Shown in pieces: positions 5,500 through 42,400 of a stretch of 64,000 nucleotides of DNA (positions within the stretch are counted from its first letter, which is position 1; the number at the start of each line of letters is the position of its first letter). This DNA comes from Candidatus Eisenbacteria bacterium (GTDB taxonomy: Bacteria > Orphanbacterota > Orphanbacteria > Orphanbacterales > Orphanbacteraceae). Made by a program: the position numbers and the translations under genes. The notes beneath the pieces are model-generated. The model made no database searches and was not told the origin of the DNA. It saw only the letters and a program-made list of their open reading frames with translations. The stretch is from assembly GCA_016930695.1 (NCBI GenBank), contig JAFGGD010000012.1, positions 1 through 64,000 on the forward strand, given 5' to 3'.

Positions 5500-5610
5500 G
5501 TTCGGCCTCCGGGCGGGGAAGGGCGCCTGCATGATTGATGTTTTCACTTTAACACGACTCGAGGAAAACGAACAGGCCGAACAAGCGCCGGGGCAAGAGT
5601 TTTCGCGGGG

Positions 5611-24011: not shown

Positions 24012-24923
24012 CTATTCCCCGTTCGTCACCGCGCGCCGCGGGATCAGGATCCGGAGGGATGCGGCGTCGCCGGTGGTGCAGTCCAGGGCGATGGTCACCG
24101 AGTGTCTCCCGCCGGGCACGACGAACTCCACGTCCCGGCCGGTTCCGGGAGTGATCTCGGGAAGACCGGGATAGACCGAGGTGTGGCTCGCCCTACCCTT
24201 GAGAGGAAAACTTTTCAGAAGCTCTCCGTCGATGGAAACCTTGATCGCGTAACGCTGGGAATAGCCGCGCTCGACGCCGAAGTCCAAGCGGGTCCGCACC
24301 TTGAGGCGCACCGGCCCGTTCAGAAAGAGGGTGACCGGCACCTCCTTGGAAAAGCGATAGTAGACGGTCTCCGTGTCGCCGGTGTGGAGGCGGATCGCCT
24401 GCTCGTACGTCTCCGGAGCGTAGGAAACCCACGCCATCTTCCGCACCACCCCGTCCCCCTGGAGAAGGCGGATCGCCACGCGCCGGACCGGGTCGACGGG
24501 AGCGACGCGGAGTGTATGCGTCCCCGGCGGGATTCGGACGATCCGTTTCTCGGCGGTTCCCACCGGGCCGCCCCCCTCGAGACGCGCCCCCGAATCCACG
24601 GACCCCTCTTCGTCGAGGATGTGGAGCTCCACGCCGTCGATCTCGAGCCGGATCCCGTAGAGGACTGTTCCTTCCGGATCCTCGCCCCCCTCGAAGAGAC
24701 AGCGCGAGATCACACGGAAAGGCGATCCGCCGTGTATCTTGAATTCCAAAGGGTTATTTCGGGTGGCCATGTGGTAGAGGCTCCATTTCCCCCCGATACG
24801 CACGCGCGCCTGCGGCGGGTCGCCCGCCGGCCGGATCCGGCTCGAGGCGCCTTCCGCCGCGGACGCGGCGAGACAGAACAGCAGGACCGCGATCGCCGGG
24901 GTCCGTGCGAGTCGCGTTCTCAT
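24012..24923 (-). CDS. Unknown exported protein of the poly-gamma-glutamate operon
   Basis: This 303-residue protein has a clear signal peptide (AIAVLLFCLAASAAEG). I do not recognise a family. The mature part is rich in beta-strand patterns in two similar halves: a lectin- or sandwich-like pattern with EKRIVRIPPGTHTLRVAPVD and VPGGRHSVTIALDC, both of the form 'P-G-x-H-x-hydrophobic'. The ATG overlaps the pgsW stop (ATGA), which ties it to that operon as the fourth gene. It may anchor, bind or modify the polymer outside the membrane; that is inference from context only. Confidence 0.75.
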   Translation of the reverse strand: MRTRLARTPAIAVLLFCLAASAAEGASSRIRPAGDPPQARVRIGGKWSLYHMATRNNPLEFKIHGGSPFRVISRCLFEGGEDPEGTVLYGIRLEIDGVELHILDEEGSVDSGARLEGGGPVGTAEKRIVRIPPGTHTLRVAPVDPVRRVAIRLLQGDGVVRKMAWVSYAPETYEQAIRLHTGDTETVYYRFSKEVPVTLFLNGPVRLKVRTRLDFGVERGYSQRYAIKVSIDGELLKSFPLKGRASHTSVYPGLPEITPGTGRDVEFVVPGGRHSVTIALDCTTGDAASLRILIPRRAVTNGE

Positions 24924-26107
24924 CGGGTCTCCTCTCTGCCGGCGCCCCGGTCCGGTGGGGAGACCGGTGGGCGGGGCTCGGCGGTCGGGCTGCTCTCCAG
25001 GGCGAGCTTGGCCGCGCGCTGGCGGGATCGAAGCACGCCGAAGCAGAGCACGGCGAAGGTAAGGAACGCGGGAACGACGATCCGCAGATCGTACATCTCC
25101 TGGTGGTAGATCTCCCCCTCCCCTACCGAAGGAATCACGTCCGGGGCGATGGGGAAACCGTGTCTCTCCGCGATCGTTTCGATCCGAAGAATATGAACCA
25201 CGGGGATGCCTCGCCTCGCGAGAAGGTGAAGCGCCCCCCGTTGAGTCCAGTTATAGGCGGGGAGCGTCTTGTTCACCCCCGCCCGGATCAGCCGTCCGTT
25301 CATGCTGGTGCCGATGCTCGCCGAACTACCACCGATGTTCACGTAGGCGCGAATCCCCCGAGGCTCGGCGTTGTCGTCGAAGATCTCCACACGGCGCCGG
25401 ATCGCGTCGTCCAGCGTCGCTTCATCGATAGCGGGAACGCCGGCCCGTTCGATCGCCTCCCGCAGGAGATTCCTCCCTTTCGGCGAGAGACCGCGCCCCC
25501 GGTCGTTGCTCCCCCCCATCGACGCGGCCACGCTTCGTGTATGAAGCAGGCCCTGATCGTTGAGCAGGGCTTCCATGTCCAGCCAGGTGAACTCCGGATC
25601 GTTCGCCCCCCACATGCTGGCGCCGATGCTGGTGATGGGGATCGCCTTGATGGACATCTCCTCCGCCGCGGCGAGAACGGCGATATTGAGCGCCGGGAAG
25701 GAACCGGTCATTGCGATCGCCACCGGGTCGCCCGGCTCCAGTCCGCACTCGTGAAAGTACTCCACGAAAAGCGCGGCGTAGTTCGGATTCACCGACGTGA
25801 GCTTCGCCGACAGGATCCCCCGGTCCGTGGTGGTGAGACTGAACTCCTGGCCGATGAGCCCGCTCCCCTCCGGGTCGTTTTCGCGGTCGATCGCCCCGGG
25901 ACGCCCCATCCGATGCTGCCGGATCGCCTCGTAGCAGCGGATCGTCCGGGTCGCCGCGGCCATCTTCTCCAGAAGGTGCGGCTGGGGATGGAGTTTACGG
26001 GTCCTCTCGGCGGTCCCGTGCAGCACGAGGCCGAGAACGGCGAGGCCGACCAGAAAGAGGTCCGCCCTCTGCGACCAGGGCCGGGCGCTAGAAAACAGGC
26101 GTTTCAA
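24920..26107 (-). CDS. pgsW: Poly-gamma-glutamate system protein PgsW-like
   Basis: This ~395-residue protein has one membrane helix near each end (DLFLVGLAVLGLVL; VVPAFLTFAVLCFGVL). The central extracytoplasmic part carries the conserved TGSFPALNIAVLAAAEEM, TSIGASMWGANDPEFTWLDM and NIGGSSASIG blocks of the poly-gamma-glutamate system family. A TTG at 26107 is preferred because GGAGGTG lies six bases before it; the in-frame GTG at 26116 would abut that site. It overlaps pgsC and the following exported protein. The exact role is unknown, but its position implies polymer export or anchoring. Confidence 0.85.
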   Translation of the reverse strand: MKRLFSSARPWSQRADLFLVGLAVLGLVLHGTAERTRKLHPQPHLLEKMAAATRTIRCYEAIRQHRMGRPGAIDRENDPEGSGLIGQEFSLTTTDRGILSAKLTSVNPNYAALFVEYFHECGLEPGDPVAIAMTGSFPALNIAVLAAAEEMSIKAIPITSIGASMWGANDPEFTWLDMEALLNDQGLLHTRSVAASMGGSNDRGRGLSPKGRNLLREAIERAGVPAIDEATLDDAIRRRVEIFDDNAEPRGIRAYVNIGGSSASIGTSMNGRLIRAGVNKTLPAYNWTQRGALHLLARRGIPVVHILRIETIAERHGFPIAPDVIPSVGEGEIYHQEMYDLRIVVPAFLTFAVLCFGVLRSRQRAAKLALESSPTAEPRPPVSPPDRGAGREETR

Positions 26108-26552
26108 GGAGCGCACCTCCGTGGAAGATGATGAGGGCGAAACGGACCAGAACCGCCGCGACGATCATCGCCGCCAGCGTCCTCAGAATCCCCTGCCGGG
26201 TCATCCAGTAAGCGAGCAATCCGGGGATGATATAGCCGATCGAGGCGAGCGCGCCGCCGCTTTCGAGAAAGCCGATCTGCGGGATCCGGGTGGTCAGGGC
26301 GCCGAAGAGGAAGCCGAGGAGCACCGCGAAAACCAGGGTGCGCCGCCCATAAATCAGCAGAAACCGGCCGCCCAAACGGACGCACCCGTAGGTGGCGGTG
26401 GCGGCGATCACCGTGCCGAACAGGCGGAGCGGCGAGTCGAGAAAGAGGGCGATGTAGCCGGGAACCACGAAACCGCCGGCCGCGAATCCCACCGCTTCGA
26501 TGAAGAGCAGGCTCACCACGAGCCCGAGCCCGATCGCCTCAGCGATCAGCAT
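26088..26552 (-). CDS. pgsC: Poly-gamma-glutamate synthase membrane subunit PgsC/CapC
   Basis: This 154-residue, almost entirely hydrophobic protein with about five helices has family blocks FIEAVGFAAGGFVVPGYIAL, RLGGRFLLIYGRRTLVFAVL and GYIIPGLLAYWMTRQGI. Length and sequence match CapC/PgsC, the membrane partner of the PgsB ligase. The ATG at 26552 has AAAGGAG in front. It overlaps pgsB by 14 nt upstream and pgsW downstream, a compact operon. Confidence 0.93.
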   Translation of the reverse strand: MLIAEAIGLGLVVSLLFIEAVGFAAGGFVVPGYIALFLDSPLRLFGTVIAATATYGCVRLGGRFLLIYGRRTLVFAVLLGFLFGALTTRIPQIGFLESGGALASIGYIIPGLLAYWMTRQGILRTLAAMIVAAVLVRFALIIFHGGALLETPVF

Positions 26553-27868: not shown

Positions 27869-28474
27869 ATGTACGCACTGCGTAGACCTCTTCTCCCGCT
27901 TCTCCTCGCCCTTCCCCTTCTGGGCGCTCCGGGCTGCTCCGACCGCGTCGAGATCGCTTCCGGCGGACCCGACTCGACAACGGTCCATCCCGCCAAGGAC
28001 CCCGGCGGCGTCGAGGCGTCCATCGTCTTCTATAGGGCGGAGAGCAAAAAGTCGGACCGCCTCCTCGGCGAAGGACGCTTCTTCACGATCAAAGAGGACT
28101 CGAAGGTCCGCGCCCGTGTGAACCTGTTTCACGCGAACGCCCTCGGCGACCGGGAGGGGATGTTCCACCTCGTCTGGGTCGATCCGGAGGGGAAAGCGTT
28201 CTATACCAAGCGGATCGATTACAACCCGGACGCGGAAGAGGGCGCCCTTTCAAGCTCCGTCTCCGCGACTCCCGGCCGGCGCGATCCGGGCGAATACATG
28301 CTCCGGGTCTATCTCTACCGCGAGCTGATCGCGGAAAAAAGCTTCGTCCTCCTGACCGAGGAGGAGGCCGCCGCGCGCGCGAAGGCGGAGAAGGCGGCCG
28401 AATCCGGATCCTCGAAGAAGAAATCCTCCGGGAAAAAGAGGAGCGCGAAGAAGTCCGGCTCCTCGAAGAAATAG
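27869..28474 (+). CDS. Small lipoprotein with Lys/Ser-rich tail
   Basis: This ~201-residue exported protein has a signal ending LPLLGAPGCSD, a probable lipobox Cys. A central domain (about 45-150) of beta-strand character (MFHLVWVDPEGKAFYTKRID, then YMLRVYLYRELIAEKSFVLL) is followed by an extremely Lys/Ser-rich C-terminus (SSKKKSSGKKRSAKK). An AAAGGAG site fits either the ATG at 27869 or the TTG just before it. It is divergent from pgsB and convergent, with a 4-bp gap, with the next operon. The basic tail could bind polyanions such as poly-gamma-glutamate; this is speculation. Confidence 0.75.
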   Translation: MYALRRPLLPLLLALPLLGAPGCSDRVEIASGGPDSTTVHPAKDPGGVEASIVFYRAESKKSDRLLGEGRFFTIKEDSKVRARVNLFHANALGDREGMFHLVWVDPEGKAFYTKRIDYNPDAEEGALSSSVSATPGRRDPGEYMLRVYLYRELIAEKSFVLLTEEEAAARAKAEKAAESGSSKKKSSGKKRSAKKSGSSKK

Positions 28475-28478
28475 AAAT

Positions 28479-29591
28479 CTAAATCATCCGGATGACGTAG
28501 TTCTTGCTCCTCCGTTTCAGGCCGCCGAACCAGGAGGTGAGGGGGAGCATGACCGCCATCATGATCACCCAGCCGATCAGCGAGGCCCAAACGCCTCCTT
28601 CGTGGTAGTAGACCCCCATCCGTTTGGAGACAATCCCCAAAATCGCGATGTGCACCGCGTAGTAGAAGAGCGGAACCCGTCCGACGAGGCCGAGGGGGGC
28701 GGTGAGCCGCGGCCACGCGTGGCCCAGCGCCTGGATCGCCGCCATCCCCGCCGACACGGCGCCGAAGAACCAGAGGTTGTGATAGAGGCTGGGCGGATAC
28801 TTCTGGTCCAGCAGGAAGGAGTAGCTCCCGAAATCGGAGAAGGGGAAGATGTTTCCATAACCGCGGCCCATCCGCACGACCGTCGCGAGGGCGAAGGCGG
28901 TGAGTGCGATGACCAGGCTCGCCGTCACGCGCTCGCGCGTGGTCTTCCAGACCCGGAGCCAACCGTAGGCCATCACCGATCCCATCGTGCCGAGCGCCAG
29001 CCAGGGAATGACCGGGTATTTATTGAAATCCCCGGCGTCGACGAAGGTCTGCATCAGCACCCTCTGCCAGGCGACGCCCGCGTCGTAGGGGATCGCGAGC
29101 AGCAGGGGATGAACCGCGAAGAGCGCCAGCGCGACGGCGAGGCGCGCCCACCAACGCGCGTGCACGAAGAAGGTCAGGAAGACCATCGAAAGACCGATGC
29201 ACGCGATGATCCCGATGTGGTCGGGACGGAAGCGGGCGAAACCGCTCCAGGAGGAGTTCACCCAGGTGATCTGCACCAAAACCAGGAAGAGGCCGCGCTG
29301 GATCAGGTGCCAGCGGGCCGTCCGGGGGGAGACCCCTTTCTCGACACGGCGCGTGTAGGCCCACCAGACCATGGCGCCGTTCATCATCAGAAAGCCGGGG
29401 GCGCAGAGGTAGCCCACGTAGCGGAGAAGAAACTGCCCGAAACCGCCGAAGAGCGGATCGAGCGGATCGAGCTGGTTCCAGACCGAGTTGAAGTAGTAGG
29501 AGCTGTGCCCCAAAAGCATCAACACCCCCACCAGACCCCGAAACTCATCGATGAAAAGGAAACGGATCTTCCCGTCCGGTCGTGCGCTCAC
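28479..29591 (-). CDS. Multi-pass acyltransferase-like protein (DUF1624/HGSNAT type)
   Basis: This ~370-residue membrane protein has about ten helices. The N-terminal RFLFIDEFRGLVGVLMLLGH and the GHSSYYFNS that follows resemble the HGSNAT/DUF1624 acyltransferase family, which moves acetyl groups across membranes. The GTG at 29591 is chosen because AAAGGAGG precedes it; the longer frame begins inside the ribosome site. It lies 13 bp after the LVIVD/SUMF1 lipoprotein gene, so it is the last gene of that operon. It may modify a surface glycan. The family call is moderate. Confidence 0.68.
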   Translation of the reverse strand: MSARPDGKIRFLFIDEFRGLVGVLMLLGHSSYYFNSVWNQLDPLDPLFGGFGQFLLRYVGYLCAPGFLMMNGAMVWWAYTRRVEKGVSPRTARWHLIQRGLFLVLVQITWVNSSWSGFARFRPDHIGIIACIGLSMVFLTFFVHARWWARLAVALALFAVHPLLLAIPYDAGVAWQRVLMQTFVDAGDFNKYPVIPWLALGTMGSVMAYGWLRVWKTTRERVTASLVIALTAFALATVVRMGRGYGNIFPFSDFGSYSFLLDQKYPPSLYHNLWFFGAVSAGMAAIQALGHAWPRLTAPLGLVGRVPLFYYAVHIAILGIVSKRMGVYYHEGGVWASLIGWVIMMAVMLPLTSWFGGLKRRSKNYVIRMI

Positions 29592-29604
29592 CTCTCCGCC
29601 TCCT

Positions 29605-32037
29605 TTAATCAAAAAGCGTTCGGACCACGCGGAATCCGATCGTGTCGTCCTTCGAGTTGGGCCAGTAGGGCGCGCGGGAAGCGCTCCGGCTCTCCCGGGC
29701 GAAATCGTACCAGGAGCCGCCGCGAATCACCTTCTGCGAGCCCGAATCGGGCCCGCGGGGATCGACGGCGAAGCCCGAGCCGAGGTCCTCGACGTACCAA
29801 TCCCAACACCACTCCCACACGTTGCCGTGCATGTCGTAGAGGTCCCAGTCGTTCGGGTCCTTCCCCTTCAACGCGTGGGTGGTCGCCTCGGCGTTCCCGC
29901 AGTACCAGCCGGCGCCGTCCAGGACCGGCTCGAAGCCGCACCCCTCCTCGACGATCCCGCCCGCCGCGAAGGCGGTGGCCGTTCCGGCGCGGCAAGCCCG
30001 CTCCCACTCCGCTTCCGTCGGCAATCGCCATCCGTCGGCGTTCCTGTCCCAGGTCACCGTTTCGCCGGCGACGGTGTAGGCGGGAGTGAGCCCCTCCAGA
30101 AGGGAGAGGGCGTTGCAGTAGAGAACCGCGTCGAACCAGGAGACGTTCTCCACGGGGAGATCATCGCCGACGAAAACGGAGGGATTGGTGTCCATCACCG
30201 CGGCGTACTCCGCCTGGCTGACCTCGTGGTCGGCGTACTCCACCGAGGCGCTCAGCGCCACCGAGTGGAGCGCCTCGTCCCCGTCCCGGCCGGATTCACC
30301 CGCCGGGCTCCCCATGGTGAACACGTAGCCGACGCCGGGCCCGGCGAGGGTGTCCGTTCTCACCGACCCTCCGCCGCCGTAGGAGAAGACGAAGAGATGT
30401 TCATGCTCCCCCCACTCCTCGATCGAGGTCTCGTAACGGAAAAGCGCCCCGTTCCGGTAGTCCGTCGAAACCGCCGTCAGGTCGTGGATCTCTTCGTCGA
30501 TGACCACGCGGGCCGCCGTGGGCGCTTCGTTGTCCCAATCCTCGTAGGTGATTTCAAAGCGGAAGGTCGAGTCCGGCGGAGCCACCTCCGGCCGGACGGA
30601 GGCGTTCCGGATCGTCGGCGGCGTGTTCTCCGTCGAAGTGACGACGACGATGGAGTTGGAGAGCCCGGACCAGTTCCCTTTCTCGTCCGCCGTCTTCATC
30701 GCGAAAGCGTACTCGGTCCCCGCGGCGAGGCCGTCCATCCAGTACTGCTCCGCGAGGCCGCGCGCGCCGGGCGCCGGAGGCGCGGGGCAGGCGTGTGCGG
30801 AGTCCCAATCCGCCTCGGTTTCGATCGGATCGAGCGAGTAGCGTAGGTCGTAGGAGGAGGCGTTCCCCTCCAGGCCGTCGTCGCCCGGCGCGGTCCACTC
30901 GAGCCGGACGGCGTTCCTCGGCGCGGCGGTGGACCGCAGGTCCCAGACCCGCGACGGGGCGGTTCGGTCCGTGAAGGGATTCTCTCCCTGTAGGACCAAT
31001 ATCCCGTCGTAACGATCGCTCACCACGACCACGCCGTCCTCGCCGACGGCGACGCCGGTCGCCTTGCTGGTGACGATCGTGCCGAGCCAGTTCGGAGACG
31101 CGGGCGTCGTCACGTCCACCACGTGCACGCCGCCGTCGTCCGCCGCCAGAAAAGCGGTCCCGTCCCGGACCACGATGTCGAAGCAGAGTCCGTCCAGGGC
31201 GAGGTGCGCCACCTGGTGCGGCGTGGGGATCTCGTCCTCTCCCTCGCGGACGATCTCCAGCACCACGAGTCCGTTTTCCTCGTCGGCGACGAAGGCGTAA
31301 TCCCCCTCGAGGGCGATGCACTCCGCCTCGCCGTCGGTGTCGCAGGAAGAGACCAGACGGACGGCGCCGAGCATCCGGGTGCGCACGTCCAGCACGGCGA
31401 CCCCCATCTCGTCGTCCGCCACGTAGGCGTAGCCGTCCTTCACCGCCACCGAGCGCGCGTAGCCGCGCGTGCCGGCGAAGACGCCGTTGTACTGCAACAG
31501 GCCGGGGATGGAGGGATCGGACTCGAAGATCCGCAGTCCCTTCCAGCTCTCGGCCAGATAGACCACGTAGGGATCGCCGGGATGATCCGGCATCTCGATG
31601 AAAAGCCCGTCGCCGTCCACCGCCGTCGTCCCCTGGTTGAAGGAAAAGGCGTTCGGCGGGTCGGTGACGTCGTAGGTGGTGATCCCCTCGGTCCCCTCCA
31701 CGACGAAAGCGATGTCGAGCACCGAGCCGCCGTGGAGTGTGCTCGCCACGCGAACCGACTCGGAGTATTTCACCGTGTTCAACATGAGCGTCAGTTCGGG
31801 ATCCTTTGGATCGGAAATGTCGACCACCACGAGCCCGGCCTGTCCGCCCGCCACGAAGGCGTAGCTCCCGAGGACGTCCACTCCCTCCACCTGGCTGGGC
31901 AGGGAGAGGCGTCCCACCACCCGGTACGGGGCGGTGGGCGGTTCGTACAGATCCTGCATGCCGCAGCCGGCCAGCGCGGCCGCCGCGAGAAAGAGGGTGA
32001 AGGTCGCCTTCCCCCAGCCCATCCGGTTGCCGATCAT
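29605..32037 (-). CDS. LVIVD propeller, FN3 and SUMF1-domain lipoprotein
   Basis: This 810-residue lipoprotein (LAAAALAGC, Cys25) starts with LVIVD-type repeats at about 35-340 (SYAFVAGGQAGLVVVDISDP, YAYVADDEMGVAVLDV, YAFVADEENGLVVLEI), which should form a beta-propeller. An FN3 domain lies at about 345-450 (AVRLEWTAPGDDG...YAFAMKTADEKGNWSGLS). An unassigned sandwich follows. An FGE-sulfatase/SUMF1 domain at about 565-808 has NVSWFDAVLYCNAL, WRLPTEAEWERACRAG, YDMHGNVWEWCWDW and VIRGGSWYDF. The catalytic cysteines of true formylglycine-generating enzymes are absent at the end, where SRSASRAPYWP is found. It probably acts as a surface scaffold or binding protein. Confidence 0.88.
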   Translation of the reverse strand: MIGNRMGWGKATFTLFLAAAALAGCGMQDLYEPPTAPYRVVGRLSLPSQVEGVDVLGSYAFVAGGQAGLVVVDISDPKDPELTLMLNTVKYSESVRVASTLHGGSVLDIAFVVEGTEGITTYDVTDPPNAFSFNQGTTAVDGDGLFIEMPDHPGDPYVVYLAESWKGLRIFESDPSIPGLLQYNGVFAGTRGYARSVAVKDGYAYVADDEMGVAVLDVRTRMLGAVRLVSSCDTDGEAECIALEGDYAFVADEENGLVVLEIVREGEDEIPTPHQVAHLALDGLCFDIVVRDGTAFLAADDGGVHVVDVTTPASPNWLGTIVTSKATGVAVGEDGVVVVSDRYDGILVLQGENPFTDRTAPSRVWDLRSTAAPRNAVRLEWTAPGDDGLEGNASSYDLRYSLDPIETEADWDSAHACPAPPAPGARGLAEQYWMDGLAAGTEYAFAMKTADEKGNWSGLSNSIVVVTSTENTPPTIRNASVRPEVAPPDSTFRFEITYEDWDNEAPTAARVVIDEEIHDLTAVSTDYRNGALFRYETSIEEWGEHEHLFVFSYGGGGSVRTDTLAGPGVGYVFTMGSPAGESGRDGDEALHSVALSASVEYADHEVSQAEYAAVMDTNPSVFVGDDLPVENVSWFDAVLYCNALSLLEGLTPAYTVAGETVTWDRNADGWRLPTEAEWERACRAGTATAFAAGGIVEEGCGFEPVLDGAGWYCGNAEATTHALKGKDPNDWDLYDMHGNVWEWCWDWYVEDLGSGFAVDPRGPDSGSQKVIRGGSWYDFARESRSASRAPYWPNSKDDTIGFRVVRTLFD

Positions 32038-32125
32038 GGAAGCTCTCCTCTTTCCGGGCGCCCCCCTGGAGCGCCGGGCTTTCCGTACGGGCCCGCGGGC
32101 GGGTCCGGTCGATTCCTCACGGGAG

Positions 32126-33373
32126 CTAGAAGGGGTATTCGAGCCCCAACCAGGTTCGGTTTTCCACGTAGTCCTTTTCCTCGCCGATGCCGGCGTCGTC
32201 CGTTCCGCCCGTCCAGGCGGCGTCGGACGTCCGCATGGTATAGCGATAGCCGGCTTCCAGGCTGAGAGGGCCGAAGATCCGGCCCGTCTCGCCGGTCACT
32301 TCGACCCTGCGGATCAAGTCCTTCCGCCCCGTGTGGAGCGGGTCTTCATAATACGGTTTTTCGCCCGTGAAATAGTAAGTCTGGTACTCCCACCCGACGC
32401 TGAGGGCGTTGATCTTCGGCAGGATCCCGGAGGTGTAGAAGCGGAGGGTGAGATCGAAGGCGTCCCTCACGTACGTGGGATCGCTGTCGTTCGAGTTCTC
32501 CCGGGTTTCCCCCGCTTCGTCCGCGCCCCGGCCGAGCACGTCGCTGTAGTAGTACGCGAAGGTCAACTTCAGGGGGCGGATGAAACGCCAGGCGAGATAG
32601 CCGCCGAAGCGCCACTCCCAGTTGTCGTTCTCCATGAACTCCCGGTTGAAATAACGCCAGGAGCGTTTCACCTCCAGCTTGCCGTCGAAGGCGGAGGAGA
32701 GCCGCCGCCAGTATCCGAGCGTGAGCGAGTTGGAGGTGTAGGAAAAATTGTAGTACTCGAGAGGCGCCGAACGGGACGTGTAGGGCGCGCGGTCCCGGAA
32801 GTTCCGGATGTAGGAAAGAGGGGCGTAATAATAAGAAAGCTGAAAGTTGTCCCGCCCGAAGCCGGCGTGTTTCAAACCGATCTGGTACGACTGGTTGTCC
32901 TTCACGCCGTTGTTCACATAGCGCCAGGTGCTGGCCCGGAACGAGATCTCCAGATCCCTGCCTGTGATCTCCGGCGTCTCCAAGGTCATCTCAAACCGGG
33001 GTCGGACGATCCAGTCGTGGGCGGTTTCGATGGAGAACTTGCCGGTGTTCACCGTGTGGGCGAACTCATCCAGGTCCTCGTCGGAATAATGGATGAAGTT
33101 GTCGTCGAACACGAACCGGAGGGCGAAGAGTCCCGAAAGACGGACCTTCGGCTCCTCCTTCTTCTTCTTTTTCTTCTTCGCGCTCGACTTTTTCTTCGCC
33201 GGTTTCTTTGCGGCGCGCGCCGTGTCCTTCTCCGCCGGCGCGGGGAGGCCGTCGGGAAGCGCGGCGCGAACCGCCGGCGACGCCTCCGATCGTTCCGGCG
33301 CGGCGGCGCCGAGAAGGAACAGGAAGAGGGGCGGGGCCCACCACCATCGCATTTTTCGAAAGAGGCGATTCAT
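32126..33373 (-). CDS. Outer-membrane beta-barrel protein with Lys-rich linker
   Basis: This 415-residue protein has a signal peptide (about 1-31) and then a Pro/Ala/Lys linker with a run of lysines at about 52-75. After that come alternating amphipathic strands rich in Tyr/Trp that end in Phe (TWLGLEYPF), as expected for a barrel. The (CTT)n-like tract at about 33155-33200 encodes the lysine run. It starts 24 bp after the C25-like gene and precedes the LVIVD lipoprotein by 88 bp. A role in placing the neighbouring surface proteins is possible but unproven; I see no match to a named T9SS component. Confidence 0.75.
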   Translation of the reverse strand: MNRLFRKMRWWWAPPLFLFLLGAAAPERSEASPAVRAALPDGLPAPAEKDTARAAKKPAKKKSSAKKKKKKKEEPKVRLSGLFALRFVFDDNFIHYSDEDLDEFAHTVNTGKFSIETAHDWIVRPRFEMTLETPEITGRDLEISFRASTWRYVNNGVKDNQSYQIGLKHAGFGRDNFQLSYYYAPLSYIRNFRDRAPYTSRSAPLEYYNFSYTSNSLTLGYWRRLSSAFDGKLEVKRSWRYFNREFMENDNWEWRFGGYLAWRFIRPLKLTFAYYYSDVLGRGADEAGETRENSNDSDPTYVRDAFDLTLRFYTSGILPKINALSVGWEYQTYYFTGEKPYYEDPLHTGRKDLIRRVEVTGETGRIFGPLSLEAGYRYTMRTSDAAWTGGTDDAGIGEEKDYVENRTWLGLEYPF

Positions 33374-33397
33374 CCTTCAATCACTCCCCGCCCGCCG

Positions 33398-36300
33398 TCA
33401 TCGGAGTAGGGTCAGCTTGATGCGACGCTCGCCGGCGCCCGCCTGGAGACGGGCGAAGTAGACGCCGCTCGGGACCGAACGGCCCCGGTCGTCCCGGCCG
33501 TCCCACTCGACGGTCCGGACTCCCGGATCAACGGTCTCCCGGACGAGCGTGCGGATCATCCGCCCGGTGACGGAGTAGATCCGGAGCCGCGCGTCGCCTC
33601 GCTCGGGGAGCGCGTAGGAGAGCAGGACCCCGCCGCGGGCCGGGTTCGGCCCGGCGTGCCCGAGCGCGAACCGGATCGCGCGGGCGCCCCGCCCTTCGTA
33701 TACGCAGGGACCGAGGAGCTTTTCCGCGCCGGTCGGGTCGATCGAGCCGATTTCGTAGGCCGCCTCCGCCGCCGGGTCGACGTCCCGATCCACGTGGGAG
33801 CGCGCCTCCGGGCCGAGGGCGCCGCCCGGGAGCAGGAGCCTATCCCCGCCCGCGCCGACACGGTAGATCCGGTAGCCGGCCAGGGGGCGATCGTCGCCGG
33901 GAATCCAGTCGAGGCGGACCCCCTCCTCGCATGCCTTCGCGGTGAATGCGGCGAGGGTGAAGGGATCGTAGCGCGGGGAACGGGTGGTGAACTCCACCGC
34001 CAGGCCGGCCGAGAGAGGCGCCGCCGCCGCCGGGTAGAGGTCGGAGTAACTGTACTCGAGGCCGTCGTCCTCCGCCATGTTCTCGATTCCCACGGTAGCG
34101 TACATCCGTTCGTCGTCGTTGTTGACGATTCGTTTATACTGGAAGCGAATCACGCCGTCGCCGGTCGGCGTATCGCGATACGCCGGATCGTAGAAGATCA
34201 TTTCGAAGGTCTGCAGGTCGTCCCAGTCCTCGTGGTTGTCGTGCTGGGACCGGAGATTCCCCAGGCGGCTCCACTCGATCACATAGCGGTGCTCCCCATC
34301 GTCGTAGAAGGCGTAGATCCCGTCCCCCACGGGTACGTCGTTCTCCTCCTTCTCCGGGTTCAGGTTGTCCCAGAACGGAGCGATCATGGCGGCGTTGCCG
34401 TAGGAGTTGGGGAGACTCCAGTTGTAGAAATCGAAGCGGTTCGCCAGGTCGAAGGCAGCCCACCCGTTGTCGCTGATCAGGATGCTGTCGTAAGAGACCC
34501 CGTAATAGACGAAGGGAAACGGGAGCGCCCGGACCGCGCCGTCGCCGTCGCCGAGGCCGAGGGAGATCCCGGAACCGCCGTAGGTCGGGGAGATCTCCAC
34601 CCACTCGAAGAGAGGCGCCGCGTCGGGATAATCGGTGTCCGAGTTGTCGTAGGCCCAGTAGCCGTAGCGATCCGGGCCCAAGGGGGCGCGATGGTCCACG
34701 GCGCCGATGACGACCGAGAAGTCGGTCCTCGTCGTACGGCCGTCGTCGGCGGTGAGGAGGAGCGTGAAGACCGCCGCGCGGCCGACGGCGGCGGTGTCCG
34801 TCGCCTGGATGCCGAAGGTGCCGGCCGGAGAGGTGCCGCCGGAATCGACGGCGGCGTAGTCCGCCGTGGAATCGATCGCGAACGCGAGGCCGGGCGTGAC
34901 GGCCCGGAGAACGCCGTGGGTCGCCGGGGCGTTTGCCCCGTCGTTCCGCCACACGACATCGATGCCCGCGAACTCGCCCGGATCGAGGACGCCGTCCCCT
35001 TCGAGGGAATGCGAAACATAAACCGGGTCGGGCGCGCGAACCACCAAATCGAACCCGTGGGTCGTCGTGTCGCCGTCGACGATCGCGTCCACCCGCAGCC
35101 GCGCCCGGAATCCCTCCTCCAGGCCGGCGCCCAGAAGGACCGTCCACGTGGAGTCGGACCAGGCCGATCCGCCGGCGAGGATGTCCGGGAACGTGGAAAC
35201 GCCGGTGACCACCGTGGCGCCGGCGCCGTCCGCGCCCAGAGACGCCGTCACGCCGGAAAGCGATTGCGCGCCGTCGCCGGCGAGGCGGATACGGAGCGCC
35301 AGAATCTCACCCGGCTCCGGAAGGCCGTCGCCGTCCCCGTCGCTCCCGTAGGAACCGTCGTCGGTGAACCACACCTCGGCGAGGGAGAGTTCGGGACGGC
35401 CGGCGTCCACCGCCGCGCTGTCGAGGACCGGGAAGATCCCCGGGCCGGTGACGGTCAGCCGCACCGGCTCCGCGCCGGCGGAGACGTTCGCCAGAACGGT
35501 CGCGCGTCCGTACTCGTCGGTCCAGGCGCGGCCGAGCGTCACGCCGCCGCGGGAGAGGCCGACGCGGGCCCCCTCGACGAAAGTGGCGCCATCCGCCTCG
35601 AAGACCGCCACCTCGATCCGCCCCGTCCCTGGCGGAATCGTGTCCGGCCAGGCCGCATGGATCGTTCGGGGAACCGCGGTCCGGATCTCCAGGGAGGGAT
35701 CTCCGAGAAGACCGTAGATGTAGTAATAAAACTCCACCGATTCGTCGGTGTAGGGATCGTAGGGGATTTGGTCCGGGAAGGAGCGCCAGATCTCCGCCTT
35801 CGCGGAGTTCAGGATCGCGCCGAGACGCCTCTCGCCCCGCTCGCGGATCGCCCGGAAGGCGCCGATCGCCGCGGCGTCGTTGTGCCGCGTGTGGGACCAG
35901 TGCTCGCTGTTCCCGATGAAGGCGATCCCTCCCTTGGGGGAAGAGGCGGTGCCCGCGCGGATCCAGGCCTCGCCGAAACACTCGGTGTTGGTGAAGTTGC
36001 CGTTCTCGCAGACGAAGCTGAACACCGCCGGAAGCATCCAGCCGTTGCTCAGGCTCGGGATTTCGTCCACCGTGAAGTGGGGCGGTTCCCAGCCGCGCCA
36101 CCCGTAGGCCCAGCCCCGGTAGCTGACGAGGGAGACCCCCTTGTTGACGGAGGAGCGGATGAAGGGGGCGCCGGTCCCCCAGTGGGGCGGGTAAAAGACG
36201 GTGTCCACCGCCGTGAAGCCGGCGTCGTAGAGCTGATCGCGGCACCAACGGGAGACGGGCACGGGCGTGTTGGAACTATAGTCCCCCGCCACGAGGAGAG

Positions 36301-37201
36301 CCCGGCCGTACCAGGTGGTGTCCGCTATATAGGGATCCCCTTCGTAGCGAAGGATTTTTGCGACGATCGTCTCCAGGTCATCGGCGTTCTGCGCCGAGAG
36401 ACGCCCCACTTCCAGATCGGGAAGAAAATCGTCGTCGTCCATCAGGCTATAGGGAAGATCGGTGACGCTCTGGTGATAGTCGAACCCGGCAACCTGCTCC
36501 ACATCCCCGAGGAGAAGGACGTACTGGGGCGGCGTTCCGGATCCGTCGTAGAGCCCCTTTATATAGGAGCGGATCTCGTCGTTGCGGGTGCCCGTCTCGT
36601 TGGTGGTGACCAGCGTCACGTCATAGCCCAGAGACCGTTTCCACTCCGCGAGAGGCTCCGCCGCCGCTTCGAGAGAGGGATGCGTCACGATCAGCATTCC
36701 CCCTTCCTCTCCGGCGCCGGCGAGGGCGGACCTCTGGTCCTCCGGGAAGAGGTCGAGGAAGGGATCGTAGAAGCCGCGGCTCATCGCCGCCGCCGCGCCC
36801 GCCCCCCCCTTGCCCGGGGCGGTTTCGTAACGAATCTCCAGATCGAAGGCGCGGCGGAGTTCCGCGCCCGCGCTCGCCTTGTCCGCCGCCGGCGCAAAAC
36901 GGATCGGAAGAACGGAGACGCCGCGTAGTTTCATGACCGGTCCGGCGAAGGCGCGGACCGGCGGGTTTTCCTTCCCGGCGGACGGGAGGAGACGAGGCTC
37001 GGCGGCGTCCGGCGGGAGGGCGATCCAACGGACCGTCTCCGCCGCGAAGGGGACCGGCCCGTCGTCCCGCACGGTCAGACGGATCGCGCCGGGCGAGGGA
37101 ACGGTTCGCAAGGTCAGGGCATCCGCCCCCTCCGTCACCGCGCCGGCGGGGAGTGCGCCGGCGAGACAGCAGAGTGCGGCGACAAGCAAGGTGCTCCGCA
37201 T
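33398..37201 (-). CDS. C25 (gingipain-like) family surface protein, active-site variant
   Basis: This 1267-residue secreted protein has a signal peptide at 1-22; the ATG at 37201 has GGAGG in front. A C25-type domain spans about 150-510. It aligns to gingipain R around the active site (GVSLVSYRGWAYG ... FVCENGNFTNTECFGEAWIR). The Cys nucleophile is kept (Cys398) but the catalytic His position is Trp364 (YRGW for YTGH). Ig/CARDB-like domains follow. A ~250-residue module (ALPFPFVYYGVSYDSILISD, then IAPFWDNLNPE) is shared with the protein at 39460. A FlgD-like sorting tail (GPNPARGG...SGVYFARLQAG) ends it. It is probably cell-surface. Catalysis is doubtful. Confidence 0.87.
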   Translation of the reverse strand: MRSTLLVAALCCLAGALPAGAVTEGADALTLRTVPSPGAIRLTVRDDGPVPFAAETVRWIALPPDAAEPRLLPSAGKENPPVRAFAGPVMKLRGVSVLPIRFAPAADKASAGAELRRAFDLEIRYETAPGKGGAGAAAAMSRGFYDPFLDLFPEDQRSALAGAGEEGGMLIVTHPSLEAAAEPLAEWKRSLGYDVTLVTTNETGTRNDEIRSYIKGLYDGSGTPPQYVLLLGDVEQVAGFDYHQSVTDLPYSLMDDDDFLPDLEVGRLSAQNADDLETIVAKILRYEGDPYIADTTWYGRALLVAGDYSSNTPVPVSRWCRDQLYDAGFTAVDTVFYPPHWGTGAPFIRSSVNKGVSLVSYRGWAYGWRGWEPPHFTVDEIPSLSNGWMLPAVFSFVCENGNFTNTECFGEAWIRAGTASSPKGGIAFIGNSEHWSHTRHNDAAAIGAFRAIRERGERRLGAILNSAKAEIWRSFPDQIPYDPYTDESVEFYYYIYGLLGDPSLEIRTAVPRTIHAAWPDTIPPGTGRIEVAVFEADGATFVEGARVGLSRGGVTLGRAWTDEYGRATVLANVSAGAEPVRLTVTGPGIFPVLDSAAVDAGRPELSLAEVWFTDDGSYGSDGDGDGLPEPGEILALRIRLAGDGAQSLSGVTASLGADGAGATVVTGVSTFPDILAGGSAWSDSTWTVLLGAGLEEGFRARLRVDAIVDGDTTTHGFDLVVRAPDPVYVSHSLEGDGVLDPGEFAGIDVVWRNDGANAPATHGVLRAVTPGLAFAIDSTADYAAVDSGGTSPAGTFGIQATDTAAVGRAAVFTLLLTADDGRTTRTDFSVVIGAVDHRAPLGPDRYGYWAYDNSDTDYPDAAPLFEWVEISPTYGGSGISLGLGDGDGAVRALPFPFVYYGVSYDSILISDNGWAAFDLANRFDFYNWSLPNSYGNAAMIAPFWDNLNPEKEENDVPVGDGIYAFYDDGEHRYVIEWSRLGNLRSQHDNHEDWDDLQTFEMIFYDPAYRDTPTGDGVIRFQYKRIVNNDDERMYATVGIENMAEDDGLEYSYSDLYPAAAAPLSAGLAVEFTTRSPRYDPFTLAAFTAKACEEGVRLDWIPGDDRPLAGYRIYRVGAGGDRLLLPGGALGPEARSHVDRDVDPAAEAAYEIGSIDPTGAEKLLGPCVYEGRGARAIRFALGHAGPNPARGGVLLSYALPERGDARLRIYSVTGRMIRTLVRETVDPGVRTVEWDGRDDRGRSVPSGVYFARLQAGAGERRIKLTLLR

Positions 37202-37287
37202 CGTAATCCTCCTGATCGGCGCGCGGTCGCGCACCGTAGATCCCGCAACCGTAACGGATTCGGCTTGCGCTTTCTACCGTGTTCCCG

Positions 37288-38922
37288 TCATCGGGTGATC
37301 ACGAGGCGACCGCTCCGTGGGGACGGATCGCCCGTGATTCGGTAGAAGTAGATGCCGCTCGACACCGGTCGTCCCGCGTCGTCCCGGGAGTCCCATTCCA
37401 CCTGTTGCGCGCCGGCGCCGAGATCACGGTCTTCCAGCATGCGCACGCGCCGGCCGGCGACATCGTAAATCGCGACGGAGACGCGGCCCGCCCGGAGGAC
37501 GCCGAAGTGGATCGTCGTGCCGTTCCGGTTGGGGTTGGGCGAAGCGTAGTGCCGCAAGGGGGGAGCGATTCCCTCCGGAGCGCTTCCCTGGTCGACGCCG
37601 ACACCGTCGCAGGTGCCGATCGTCTCGGCGCCGATCAGACCGCAAGAGGATCCGTCGGGGTGCCGTCCGGGGAAGCAGGGAGAATCGCAATGGAGGGTGA
37701 AGAGATCGTTCGCATCGTCACAGAACCGCGGGTCCTGCGAGAAATTGCCGCCGTCGTCCATGCCGCAGATCGCGTCGCCGCCGGTGTTGCCGTAAAGATC
37801 ACAGCAGGAGAAGACCGGCGTCCCGTCCGTGCAGGTGATGCCGGCGCCCGGGCCGTTGAAGGCGAGGATGGTTTGCTCGATGACGGGGGAGCAGTACTGC
37901 GAGGTAATGCCCCCGCCCAGTTCGTCGTCCACCGTTCCGTTTCCGGCGATGGTGCATTGAAGCAGCGAGCAGGCGTTGGCGAAAAAGAGGAAGAGACCGC
38001 CGCCGTCGGAGTCGTCGCCGGGCGCGCTGTTGCCGGTGACGACGGAGGCGCGCATGACCAGAGTCGCCATCTCCAGATAGATGCCGCCCCCGGGGCCGTA
38101 GTCTCCGGTGGTTTCGTTGTTCTGCACGTATGTGGACTCGATGGTCACCGTCGCGTTGTCGGTCACCGCGAAGCCGCCTCCCCGGCCGGAGGAGACGTTC
38201 GCGTTCACGCGGGAGTTTTTCATGGTCGCCGTGGAGTTGTTGATGCTGACACCCCCGGCCGCGCCGTTCACCGTGGGCAGGAGGTTGGAGTCGATGACGC
38301 AGTTTTCGAACGCGACGGTGCAGCCGGCGCGCACGAAGACGCCGCCGCCGGCGGGCGCCTCGTTCCGGAGAACGCGGCAACCGTAGAAACCGACGTCGCA
38401 GGTGTTCTCGACCGCCACGCCCCCGCCCTGTTTGGAATGGTTGTCGTTGATTTCACAGTCGAAGAAGTCCACATCCGAGCCGTCCATGACGATCACGCCG
38501 CCGTCGTGATTGTCGGTGATCACGCAATCCTCGACGATCACTTCCGCTCCATCGTCGGCGAAAATCCCCGAGCCGTACATCTCGGCGAAGGCCTTGCGGA
38601 CGGTCAAGCCCTCGATCCGGACCCCGGTGACGCCGTCGCAGAAGATTCCCCGTCCCAGGCTGTCGCCGTCGATGATCGCGCCCGGTTCGCCCAGAAGCGA
38701 GACGCCCGACTTCATGTAGACGACGCACTGCGTGGTGTCCACCACGGGCGGGTAGAAGAGACTGTCGTAGACGCCCGCCGAAAGGAGCACCGTGTCTCCC
38801 GAAACGGCGGCTTCCACCGCCTCTTGGAGCAACGTGTAGTCGCCCGGCACGGTGATCGTGCCGGCGTGGGCCGCGAGTGCCGCGGCGAGAAGGATCATGG
38901 GAACGAGGTGCGTCGCTTTCAT
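37288..38922 (-). CDS. Secreted parallel beta-helix protein with FlgD-like tail
   Basis: This 544-residue protein has a signal peptide (LVPMILLAAALAAHAG). A right-handed beta-helix at about 25-420 has the opening TITVPGDYTLLQEAVEAAVS and repeated turns such as DCVITDNHDGGVIVMDG, NTCDVGFYGCRVLRNEAP and NSRVNANVSSGRGGGFAV. It ends in a sorting tail (ASPNPNRNGTTIHFGV ... SSGIYFYRI). The ATG at 38922 has GGGGAG upstream and a strong promoter close by. It is first in the putative operon that runs to 28479, 86 bp ahead of the C25-like gene. Such repeats often act in polysaccharide binding or cleavage; no catalytic residues can be named. Confidence 0.87.
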   Translation of the reverse strand: MKATHLVPMILLAAALAAHAGTITVPGDYTLLQEAVEAAVSGDTVLLSAGVYDSLFYPPVVDTTQCVVYMKSGVSLLGEPGAIIDGDSLGRGIFCDGVTGVRIEGLTVRKAFAEMYGSGIFADDGAEVIVEDCVITDNHDGGVIVMDGSDVDFFDCEINDNHSKQGGGVAVENTCDVGFYGCRVLRNEAPAGGGVFVRAGCTVAFENCVIDSNLLPTVNGAAGGVSINNSTATMKNSRVNANVSSGRGGGFAVTDNATVTIESTYVQNNETTGDYGPGGGIYLEMATLVMRASVVTGNSAPGDDSDGGGLFLFFANACSLLQCTIAGNGTVDDELGGGITSQYCSPVIEQTILAFNGPGAGITCTDGTPVFSCCDLYGNTGGDAICGMDDGGNFSQDPRFCDDANDLFTLHCDSPCFPGRHPDGSSCGLIGAETIGTCDGVGVDQGSAPEGIAPPLRHYASPNPNRNGTTIHFGVLRAGRVSVAIYDVAGRRVRMLEDRDLGAGAQQVEWDSRDDAGRPVSSGIYFYRITGDPSPRSGRLVITR

Positions 38923-38943
38923 CTGTGGATCTCCCCTTCCGCT

Positions 38944-38973
38944 TTTATACGGTCGGTGATAAGCCGGTTTCAA
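38944..38973 (-). promoter_or_regulatory. Promoter of the beta-helix/C25 surface operon
   Basis: On the minus strand TTGAAA (38973-38968), 18 bp and TATAAA (38949-38944) are followed by a leader of only about 15 nt to the ATG at 38922. The rest of the 538-bp gap 38923-39460 holds one plus-strand promoter and otherwise shows nothing coding. Confidence 0.65.
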
Positions 38974-39287
38974 CAAGGGGGAGCAGTGAGCGCGCCGATC
39001 CAAGGGCCGGTGAACGGTCCGAGACGAGGGCGCGGCGAACGCTGAGGGGCGTGGTCGAACCACAGGAGACGCCCTTCCTGCGCCGGGCCGGCGATTCCGC
39101 GCAGGGAGGGCGGGAAATCCACCGACTAAGCGAAATTATACCATACCGTTGTCCGTTCTTTCCACCCCGTTTTTCCGGTCACGGCCTCTCACCCACTCCG
39201 CCCCGAGTTCGAGGGAGTGCTTCGTAAGCGTGGCGCCCGGCGGCTCTTGCTTTCGAAAACCGCCCCCTCCGTGAAGGAAGCTAGATC

Positions 39288-39459: not shown

Positions 39460-42400
39460 ATGCGTCGATCCGCACATCTTGCGTTTTTCTGTCTTCTCTT
39501 GACCGTGTTCCCCGCTTTGCGGACCGAGTCGATGCAACCGGAACCGGCCCGGGACGCCGTCCCGACCGTGGAGGTGACGGAAGAGAGTGAGGGCGTGCTC
39601 CGCCTCCTTTTCGAAATGCCCCTTCTTTCCGAAATCGAGTTGGAGATCGACGGCGAACGTTTTCGGTCCTTCTCCGTGCCGGGCGGCGGGTTCGAGGGAG
39701 AGATCGGCGGACCGGCGACCCCCATCTTCACGCGCCTGATCGCCGTCCCCGAAGGGGCGAGGATCGAGGCGAGGGCGATCGTCCTTTCCGAGGAAACCCG
39801 CGAGGGGATTCTATTGGCTCCCCTGCAGAGAGGCGACGAGAGCCGTGAATCCGCGTTCGACTACGACGAGGAAGCCTACGCGGTCCGGGGCGCCGATTCC
39901 CCCTCGGCGAGCGTCGGCGAAACCGCCCGGATCCGCGGCCTGCGCGTCGCGCCGGTCACCTTCCGTCCCGTCCGCTACGACCCGGCGACGCGCACCCTGC
40001 GCGTGGCGGACCGGATCGAAGTGGAGATCGTTTTCGATGGAGGCGCCTCGAAAGCGTCCGCTGCGGATATCCGGCCCATGCCCCCCAGCTTCGATCTCCT
40101 CCTCAGCGAGGCGGTGGCGAATTACTCCTCACCGGACAAGAGCCGCGCGCTCCCCGGCGGCCATCTGATGATCTGCCCGAACAACGCCGCGCTGGTCGAT
40201 TCGCTGCAAAGACTTCTGGACTGGAAGGAGCGGAAGGGAGAGCCGGTCACGCTGGTCACCACCGCCGTCACGGGGACCACCACGGGGGCGATCAAGAGTT
40301 ACATCCAAAGCGTCTACAACGACGATTCCTTCAACCTCGAATACGTCACACTCGTCGGCGACGTGAGCGGCACCTACGCGATCCCCTGCTGGTATGAAAC
40401 CTCCAGCGGCTACGGCGGCGAAGGGGATCACGGCTACACCCTTCTCGACGGCACGGACATCCTGGCGGACGTTCACATCGGCCGCCTTTCGGTCAGCAGC
40501 GCCGACGAGGTTTCCCGGGTGATCAGCAAAATCGTCAACTATGAGAGCGCGCCGGAAATGGGGAGCACGAGCTGGTTCACCCGCGCCTGCGTGGTCGGCG
40601 ACCCCAGTTCCTCCGGCGAGAGCTGCGTCGAAACCGGCCGCTGGCTCGCCGACCGGCTCCTCGATCTCGGTTACGACGACATAGACACCATCTACACCGA
40701 GAATTTCGTCAGCCAGATGAGCGCTTCCATCACCCAGGGCTGCTCGGTGCACGGCTACCGCGGATGGTACTATACGAGCGGCTGGGGGACGTCGAACATC
40801 TACACCCTTAATAACGGCTACAAGCTCCCCTACGTGGTGATGCTCACCTGCGACACGGGGAGCTTCGCCGGCGGCACCTCCCGCTCCGAGGCGTGGCTGC
40901 GGGCCGGAAGCGGAACGACCACCATGAAGGGGGGAATCGGCGCGGTCGGCACCGCCACGATCCACACCCACACGCGCTACAACAACTGCATGTACTACGG
41001 CATCTGGCGCGGGATTCTCTGGGACGGACCGGCCACCATGGGCGCCTCCCTCACCCGCGGCAAGCTGGAGATCTATAATAATTATTACGACAATGAAGCG
41101 GACGTGGCGGAGACCTGGGCCTACTGGAACAACCTAATGGGCGACCCTTCGCTGGACGTATGGACCGCCGTTCCGCAAACCCTCACGGTGACCCACGACG
41201 CTTCCGTGGCGCTCGGCGCCAACTCGATCGTGGTCGAAGTGGCCGCCGGCGGCACGCCCGTCCGGGACGCGCTCGTCTGCGTCCGCAAGGGGAGCGAGAC
41301 CTACGAGAGGGGACGCACCGACGCCTCCGGTCGGATCGAACTGCCGCTGAACAACTCCTCGGGCGGCGCGATGCAGATCACCGTCACCAAGCACAACCAC
41401 CACCCCTACCTGGCCGACGTGACCGTCGACGCCGGCGGCGACCATCTGGGTTATCTGGCCCACACCGTGGACGACGACGCCTCCGGCGACAGCCAGGGGA
41501 ACGGCGACGGCAACGTGAACGCCGGCGAGGCGATCGAGCTTCCTGTGCAGCTCCGCAACTACTCCGGCGCCACGAAAACCTCCGTCACCGCCGAGCTCAC
41601 CAGCGACGACCCCTTCGTCACGATCCTGGACGGGAACGAGACCTGGGGGGACATCGGCGGCGGAGGCGATGACTGGTCCGACGAGGACTTCGACTTCCAG
41701 ATCGCGCCCGGCTGCCCGCAGGGGCATCTGGTTCAGCTCGGCCTGGACGTCTCCTCCGGCGCGTCCTCCTGGCACTCGCTGATCGAAATCCCGGTGGTCT
41801 CCAGCGCATTGGAAACCTACGCCGTCATCGTGGTCGACGGCGGGAACAGCCGCCTCGACCCGGGCGAAACGGCGAACTTGGTGGTCCGGATCGAAAACAC
41901 GGGGGAGAGCTACGCCTCGAACGTCACCGGCACGCTCTCCTCACTCTCGTCGATGGTCACCGTGGGCGACGCCTCCGGCTCCTTCGGCGGAATCGACGTG
42001 GGGGCGGTGGGCATCTGCGACACCGACTATTTCACCGTCACCGCCGACGCCTCCACCTATCAGGGCTATCTCGCCAACTTCGAAATCGTCTGCGCCTTCT
42101 CGGGCGGGCGGATCGACACGGTCCCCTTCTCCATCACCGTCGGCGCCGTCGCCACCTCCGATCCGACCGGTCCGGACGGCTACGGCTACTACGCCTTCGA
42201 CGACACCGACGCCGGCTATCCGGAGGCGCCGGTCTATTCCTGGGTGGAGTTGGATCCGTCCTACGGGGGCGACGGCACGGAGATCGTCCTCGGCGACAAC
42301 GGGACCTACCAGGACAAGTCCGTCGTGATCGCGCTCCCCTTCCCCTTCCAATACTACGGCGAGAGCTACGACACCATCACGGTCTGCTCCAACGGGTGGA

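What the first reader, a model, noticed from the sequence alone, without database searches (positions are those of the whole stretch)
28479..38973. Five-gene surface operon behind one strong promoter
Beta-helix protein, C25-like protein, outer-membrane barrel, LVIVD/SUMF1 lipoprotein and acyltransferase-like protein follow one another with gaps of 86, 24, 88 and 13 bp. The mix of secreted, barrel, lipoprotein and inner-membrane acyltransferase parts suggests one surface-assembly or glycan-modification unit that I cannot match to a described system.
Basis: partly seen in the sequence, partly recalled or inferred. Interest (0 to 1): 0.6.

Follow-up and report, generated by a model that had tools for sequence, protein, structure and literature searches.

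The report
Outer-envelope half of polyglutamate secretion locus
The five genes are real and co-directional, but they are only the outer half of a widespread gene set that appears to make poly-gamma-glutamate and carry it through the outer membrane, a step for which I found no described machinery in Gram-negative bacteria.

Summary
In detail: five minus-strand genes (38922-28479) with gaps of 86, 24, 88 and 13 bp. The single sigma-70-like promoter match upstream is no more than chance gives, so it is unproven. The unit does not end there. Directly downstream on the same strand lie PgsB, PgsC and PgsW (all over their NCBIfam cut-offs) and a 303-aa periplasmic protein (27720-24012). In same-family genomes all of these form one co-directional run of ten genes. 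Across Bacteroidota, Ignavibacteria, Eisenbacteria and Krumholzibacteria the order C25 - PgsB - PgsC - PgsW - P303 - barrel - LVIVD lipoprotein - acyltransferase recurs. In 386 genomes sampled across Bacteria, the barrel occurs in 28 of 42 genomes that have PgsW and in 1 of 344 without it (p = 5e-31). The barrel is predicted to have 14 strands, like the CymA and OmpG channels. P303 is a tandem CBM-like beta-sandwich; a P303-like lobe is fused to the barrel in four loci. Best reading: a diderm-adapted poly-gamma-glutamate synthesis and secretion system in which these genes supply the outer-membrane channel and accessory parts. Locus membership is well supported; the channel role is inferred; the roles of the acyltransferase and the C25 protein (catalytic His replaced) remain open.

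The parts
39135..39164 (-). promoter-like site (TGGAAA-18-TATAAT with TG extension)
   Evidence: 1 found, 1.2 expected, so weak
37288..38922 (-). secreted right-handed beta-helix protein with a C-terminal FlgD_ig / T9SS type A sorting-like tail
   Evidence: Beta_helix 86.9 bits; TIGR04183 32 bits (cut-off 23); conserved only in near relatives L004, L005, L132
33398..37201 (-). C25 (gingipain-like) protein with a FlgD_ig tail; catalytic His replaced by Trp, Cys kept
32126..33373 (-). BAR: predicted 14-strand outer-membrane channel with a Lys-rich tract before the barrel
29605..32037 (-). LVI: lipoprotein with LVIVD beta-propeller, fn3 and SUMF1-like domain; only the LVIVD part is present in Bacteroidota relatives
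28479..29591 (-). AT: integral-membrane HGSNAT-type acyltransferase
   Evidence: 55-70% identical orthologues in other phyla
27869..28474 (+). SML: small predicted lipoprotein with a Lys-rich C-terminus; on the opposite strand here, co-directional between AT and PgsB in L004 and L134
26539..27720 (-). PgsB, poly-gamma-glutamate synthase ligase (TTG start)
   Evidence: TIGR04012 382 bits (cut-off 222.7); start
26088..26552 (-). PgsC / CapC membrane protein
   Evidence: TIGR04011 110.6 bits (cut-off 96.45); PF14102
24920..26116 (-). PgsW, poly-gamma-glutamate system protein
   Evidence: TIGR04332 311 bits (cut-off 100)
24012..24923 (-). P303: exported tandem beta-sandwich protein (CBM-like lobes), proposed periplasmic polymer guide
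   Evidence: P303-like lobe fused to BAR in four loci
39460..44286 (+). second C25 protein (1608 aa, FlgD_ig tail), divergent neighbour; its homologues lie directly upstream of PgsB in Bacteroidota loci; catalytic His also lost

Best explanation
The five genes are the envelope half of a diderm poly-gamma-glutamate (PGA) synthesis and secretion locus that runs from 38922 to 24012. PgsB and PgsC polymerise glutamate at the inner membrane, with PgsW in the position that CapA/PgsA holds in Bacillus operons. P303, a periplasmic protein with two CBM-like beta-sandwich lobes, receives or guides the polyanion. BAR, a 14-strand outer-membrane channel with inward-facing Lys/Arg positions and (here) a poly-Lys tract at its periplasmic entrance, lets it out. 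The LVIVD propeller lipoprotein sits at the outer membrane as a surface or periplasmic partner. The HGSNAT-type acyltransferase and SML are optional modifiers. The C25 and beta-helix proteins carry T9SS-type tails and probably sit on the surface, where they bind or anchor the polymer. Shown here: locus membership, gene order, co-occurrence and predicted folds. Inferred: the product, the channel function, all the order-of-action steps, and the accessory roles.
For: PgsB, PgsC and PgsW exceed curated cut-offs. In same-family genomes (L004/G006, G003/L134) beta-helix, C25, BAR, LVI, AT, SML, PgsB, PgsC, PgsW and P303 are one co-directional run, or the stretch of it that the contig holds. In that family AT and PgsW occur in exactly the same three of seven genomes. 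Contiguous PgsB-PgsC-PgsW-P303-BAR(-LVI) recurs in loci picked only by the PgsW model, in Bacteroidota and across Bacteria. Phylogenetic profile over the same 386 genomes: BAR in 28 of 42 PgsW-positive and 1 of 344 PgsW-negative (that one a 62-aa fragment with a stop), Fisher p = 4.6e-31; P303 26 of 42 against 3 of 344, p = 2.9e-26. BAR-positive genomes span 19 families. A P303-like lobe is fused to BAR in four loci. BAR fold: CymA Z 25.7, OmpG Z 22.6. Inward-facing barrel positions that are mostly K/R: about 13, against about 5 mostly D/E. AT orthologues in 296 Bacteroidota occur in only two genomes, both PgsW-positive; all other matches are at most 34% identical.
Against: No product, export or localisation data exist. 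14 of 42 PgsW-positive genomes have no detectable BAR (some may be monodermal or use other genes; not tested). The structural match is to uptake or diffusion channels (CymA, OmpG), not to 16-18-strand polymer exporters. The inward K/R bias was inferred from strand alternation, not from coordinates, and the poly-Lys tract is not universal. AT, SML, beta-helix and C25 are present in only some loci.
Confidence: 0.7

Rival explanations
1. The barrel and lipoproteins belong to the pgs locus but do not export the polymer. They anchor or organise the capsule at the surface (Wzi-like), or serve as a general diffusion channel, and PGA leaves by another route.
For: The best structural matches are diffusion channels. 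E. coli Wzi, an 18-strand barrel, anchors capsule without exporting it (described in PMC9601211). BAR is missing in a third of PgsW-positive genomes.
Against: BAR and P303 are the most constant partners after PgsBCW, and a P303-like lobe is fused to the barrel. No other outer-membrane channel recurs among the gene families tested in these loci.
Confidence: 0.2
2. The five genes are a type IX secretion accessory or sorting unit: PorU-like C25, PorK/GldK-like SUMF1 lipoprotein and a barrel.
For: FlgD_ig and Por_Secre_tail-like tails; SUMF1 domain hits GldK at 78 bits and PorU model hits at 67 bits; a SprA homologue exists in the genome.
Against: Scores are far below the equivalog cut-offs (GldK 350, PorU 420). 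SUMF1 is absent from the lipoprotein in Bacteroidota loci. SprA is on another contig. 124 places in this genome carry the same tail domain, so the tail marks cargo, not machinery. BAR tracks PgsW.
Confidence: 0.05
3. A glycan-modification unit: acyltransferase plus SUMF1-like and lectin-like proteins act on a surface polysaccharide.
For: HGSNAT_cat domain, SUMF1 fold, beta-helix and CBM-like lobes all occur in carbohydrate biology.
Against: The synthesis genes fixed in the locus are PgsB/PgsC, and no glycosyltransferase was found among the genes scanned there.
Confidence: 0.05

Closest known systems
Bacillus pgsBCAE / capBCADE poly-gamma-glutamate operons
   Same: PgsB ligase and PgsC over curated cut-offs
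   Different: No CapA/PgsA in the locus: the only PF09587 hit in the genome is on another contig; TIGR04332 (PgsW) takes its place. Adds P303, an outer-membrane barrel, LVIVD lipoprotein, acyltransferase and C25. The published capsule model has only CapB/C mandatory and CapA/E accessory, CapD as a loner (PMC5542703).
Gram-negative PGA loci: Fusobacterium nucleatum (Candela 2009, cited in PMC3815933), Cloacimonadota CapBCA (PMC13082233), Francisella capBCA (PMC5362203)
   Same: PgsB/C-type synthesis in a diderm; Francisella capA is listed as a 'poly-gamma-glutamate system protein', the name of TIGR04332
   Different: No outer-membrane export part is described in the passages read
Synthase-dependent polysaccharide secretion (Bcs, Alg, Pga)
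   Same: Working analogy: inner-membrane synthase, periplasmic scaffold, outer-membrane beta-barrel. P303 has weak Foldseek matches to BcsB, and BAR to BcsC and to the polysaccharide outer-membrane secretin 4y25
   Different: Amino-acid polymer, 14-strand barrel instead of the 16-18 strands of polysaccharide exporters (PMC9601211), no TPR scaffold detected; not homologous by sequence
CymA / OmpG monomeric 14-strand channels
   Same: Fold (Z 25.7 and 22.6)
   Different: About 8-10% identity; linked to PgsW rather than to sugar uptake

Membership tests
PgsB/PgsC poly-gamma-glutamate synthesis system | PgsB amide ligase over equivalog cut-off | tested here: met
   TIGR04012 382.1 bits, cut-off 222.7
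PgsB/PgsC poly-gamma-glutamate synthesis system | PgsC over equivalog cut-off, adjacent to PgsB | tested here: met
   TIGR04011 110.6 bits, cut-off 96.45; ORFs overlap
PgsB/PgsC poly-gamma-glutamate synthesis system | CapA/PgsA in the locus (accessory in PMC5542703) | tested here: not met
   Only PF09587 hit is on contig C8 in a 1032-aa frame; accessory, so not disqualifying
PgsB/PgsC poly-gamma-glutamate synthesis system | Product is poly-gamma-glutamate | not testable with these tools
   needs chemistry
Outer-membrane polymer export channel | Outer-membrane beta-barrel with a pore | tested here: met
   14-strand barrel, pTM 0.71, strands mostly over 90 pLDDT; CymA Z 25.7; prediction only
Outer-membrane polymer export channel | Required for export of the polymer | not testable with these tools
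   needs a deletion or bilayer experiment
T9SS machinery (PorU, GldK/PorK) | Equivalog cut-off reached | tested here: not met
   PorU 67.3 of 420; GldK 78.5 of 350
Active C25 (gingipain) peptidase | Catalytic His-Cys pair | tested here: not met
   Cys409 kept, RgpB catalytic His aligned to Trp375; nearly all locus-linked homologues lack the His (Trp, or Glu in the GEG motif of Bacteroidota), while several other C25 proteins of this genome keep it
HGSNAT-type acyltransferase | PF07786 domain over cut-off | tested here: met
   34.2 bits, cut-off 22; relatives 54-58 bits
Formylglycine-generating enzyme (active SUMF1) | Catalytic cysteine pair near the RGGS[WY] motif | tested here: not met
   Sequence reads RGGSWYDFARESRSASR, no Cys; the need for Cys is from general knowledge

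The most novel reading that the evidence does not exclude
A dedicated and widespread outer-membrane secretion machine for poly-gamma-glutamate exists in diderm bacteria: PgsB-PgsC-PgsW-P303-BAR, often with an LVIVD propeller lipoprotein, a membrane acyltransferase and His-less C25 surface proteins. It would be the amino-acid-polymer counterpart of synthase-dependent polysaccharide secretion.
Probability: 0.55. Interest if true: 0.75.

Novelty: new variant of a known kind. Interest (0 to 1): 0.62.

Why it matters
PGA synthesis is well known from Bacillus, but how a diderm cell gets a long polyanion through its outer membrane was not described in any paper I could find. A channel candidate tied to PgsW by phylogenetic profile, gene order and domain fusion makes the question directly testable, and would let surveys tell diderm PGA secretion apart from CapB/C-like genes with other roles.

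Tried and rejected
Solved-structure search with the acyltransferase gave nothing. The T9SS-machinery reading was rejected on cut-offs and linkage. The promoter scan is uninformative (1 found, 1.2 expected). Rfam found only a tRNA. A poly-Lys tract at the barrel entrance looked general in the near set but does not hold across the wider set. An active formylglycine enzyme and an active C25 peptidase were considered and dropped on catalytic residues. The acyltransferase as an obligate part was dropped: it is absent from most loci picked by PgsW. P303 matches to carbohydrate-binding modules (Z 9.7 at best, one lobe) show a common fold only and are not taken as sugar binding. Barrel subunits of solved T9SS translocons (6h3i_F, 8gl6_F) score Z about 16 against BAR, well below CymA. 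The literature library excludes most subscription papers, so 'not described' is limited to that library.

Full report
Check of the observation. The five genes are present on the minus strand. With starts set at clear ribosome-binding sites the gaps are exactly 86, 24, 88 and 13 bp. The promoter-like site at 39164-39135 is well placed, but one such match is expected by chance.

The unit is larger than the finding. After the acyltransferase come, on the same strand, PgsB (27720-26539), PgsC (26552-26088), PgsW (26116-24920) and a 303-aa exported protein, P303 (24923-24012). PgsB, PgsC and PgsW pass NCBIfam cut-offs by 382 against 222.7, 110.6 against 96.45 and 311 against 100 bits. A small lipoprotein gene, SML (27869-28474), lies between the two halves on the opposite strand here.

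Conserved neighbourhood. The nearest genomes held are six others of the same family; the next nearest are listed only as 'same domain'. AT and PgsW occur in the same three of these seven genomes. In L004 (same family) beta-helix, C25, BAR, LVI, AT, SML, PgsB, PgsC, PgsW and P303 are ten genes in one direction. Relatives of AT at 55-70% identity turned up in records labelled Bacteroidetes, Ignavibacteriaceae, Eisenbacteria, Krumholzibacteriia and Gemmatimonadetes. Wherever the contig was long enough, most had BAR, LVI, P303 and PgsBCW beside AT. To avoid bias from starting with AT, I then anchored on the PgsW model alone: 12 of 296 sampled Bacteroidota and 42 of 386 genomes across Bacteria carry it. 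I pulled most of their loci and searched them with profiles of each gene. In the Bacteroidota set BAR and P303 directly follow PgsW in 6 of 11 loci. In the Bacteria-wide set 16 of 43 loci have BAR and 18 have P303 (window-family loci not counted).

Phylogenetic profile. Searching the same 386 genomes with the BAR and P303 alignments: BAR in 28 of 42 PgsW-positive and 1 of 344 PgsW-negative genomes, the one exception being a 62-aa fragment with a stop codon; Fisher p = 4.6e-31. P303 26 of 42 against 3 of 344, p = 2.9e-26. Genomes are related, so the p-values overstate independence, but BAR-positive genomes span 19 families. In four loci the barrel carries an extra P303-like lobe at its N-terminus, in one reading frame, which suggests physical contact.

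Folds. BAR is predicted as a 14-strand barrel (mean pLDDT 73, strands mostly over 90, pTM 0.71). The best matches are CymA (Z 25.7, rmsd 3.3, 291 aligned) and OmpG (Z 22.6), both wide monomeric channels. By strand alternation, inward positions that are mostly Lys/Arg outnumber mostly Asp/Glu ones by about 13 to 5. P303 is two beta-sandwich lobes (pLDDT 83, lobe arrangement uncertain at pTM 0.48), matching CBM6/35/36-type modules (Z up to 9.7) and weakly BcsB. LVI keeps only the LVIVD propeller in Bacteroidota, so the SUMF1 domain is a lineage addition; it has no cysteines at the formylglycine motif.

C25 proteins. In gingipain alignments the window protein keeps the catalytic Cys (Cys409) but has Trp375 at the catalytic His. 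Nearly all locus-linked C25 homologues lack this His (Trp, or Glu in a GEG motif), while several other C25 proteins of this genome keep it. This may mean a polymer-binding or altered-chemistry role. The tails (TIGR04183 25-32 bits, cut-off 23) and a SprA homologue in the genome suggest export by a T9SS-like route; 124 places in the genome carry such tails.

Mechanism, with what is shown and what is inferred. Shown: gene set, order, co-occurrence, folds by prediction. Inferred from family knowledge: PgsB/C make poly-gamma-glutamate. Inferred: P303 guides the chain across the periplasm, BAR releases it, LVI assists at the outer membrane, AT modifies the chain or a partner (perhaps acetylating its free amino end; low confidence), C25 and beta-helix hold it at the surface.

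Known or new. Published PGA models need only CapB and CapC with CapA, CapD and CapE accessory (PMC5542703). Reports on Gram-negative or candidate-phylum PGA (PMC13082233, PMC3815933, PMC5362203) describe no outer-membrane part in the passages read, and searches for PgsW/TIGR04332 found no study of it. The closest working analogy is synthase-dependent polysaccharide secretion, whose barrels have 16-18 strands (PMC9601211). I therefore rate this a new variant of a known kind.

Noticed in passing
window 27869-28474 (+) against L004 and L134: The small lipoprotein gene SML is inverted relative to same-family genomes, where it is co-directional between AT and PgsB; L005 also has it inverted.
   Followed up: partly
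L108:6984-8450, L112:11601-13145, L117:6997-8535, L118:11339-13105: P303-like lobe fused in frame to the barrel, with a separate P303 gene beside it.
   Followed up: yes
window 39460-44286 and G000:C26:111045-112040: Two further C25 proteins of this genome also lack the catalytic His (YRGW, YRGF); others keep it.
   Followed up: partly
L075:6863-8077, L076:12470-13675, L101:10651-11772: Divergent HGSNAT-type acyltransferases sit next to PgsB or PgsW, suggesting repeated recruitment of this enzyme type to PGA loci.
   Followed up: no
window 44384-47678 (-): Sigma-54 response regulator and PAS histidine kinase next to the second C25 gene; possible regulator of the locus.
   Followed up: no
window 4180-5547 (-): Strong serpin (317 bits) in a bacterium that carries 13 C25 domains.
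   Followed up: no
whole genome G000: 124 places match the FlgD_ig tail domain in 3.8 Mb.
   Followed up: no
loci L107, L114, L122, L123, L126-L130: PgsW-family genes with no detectable PgsB or PgsC within about 10 kb; they may serve other systems.
   Followed up: no
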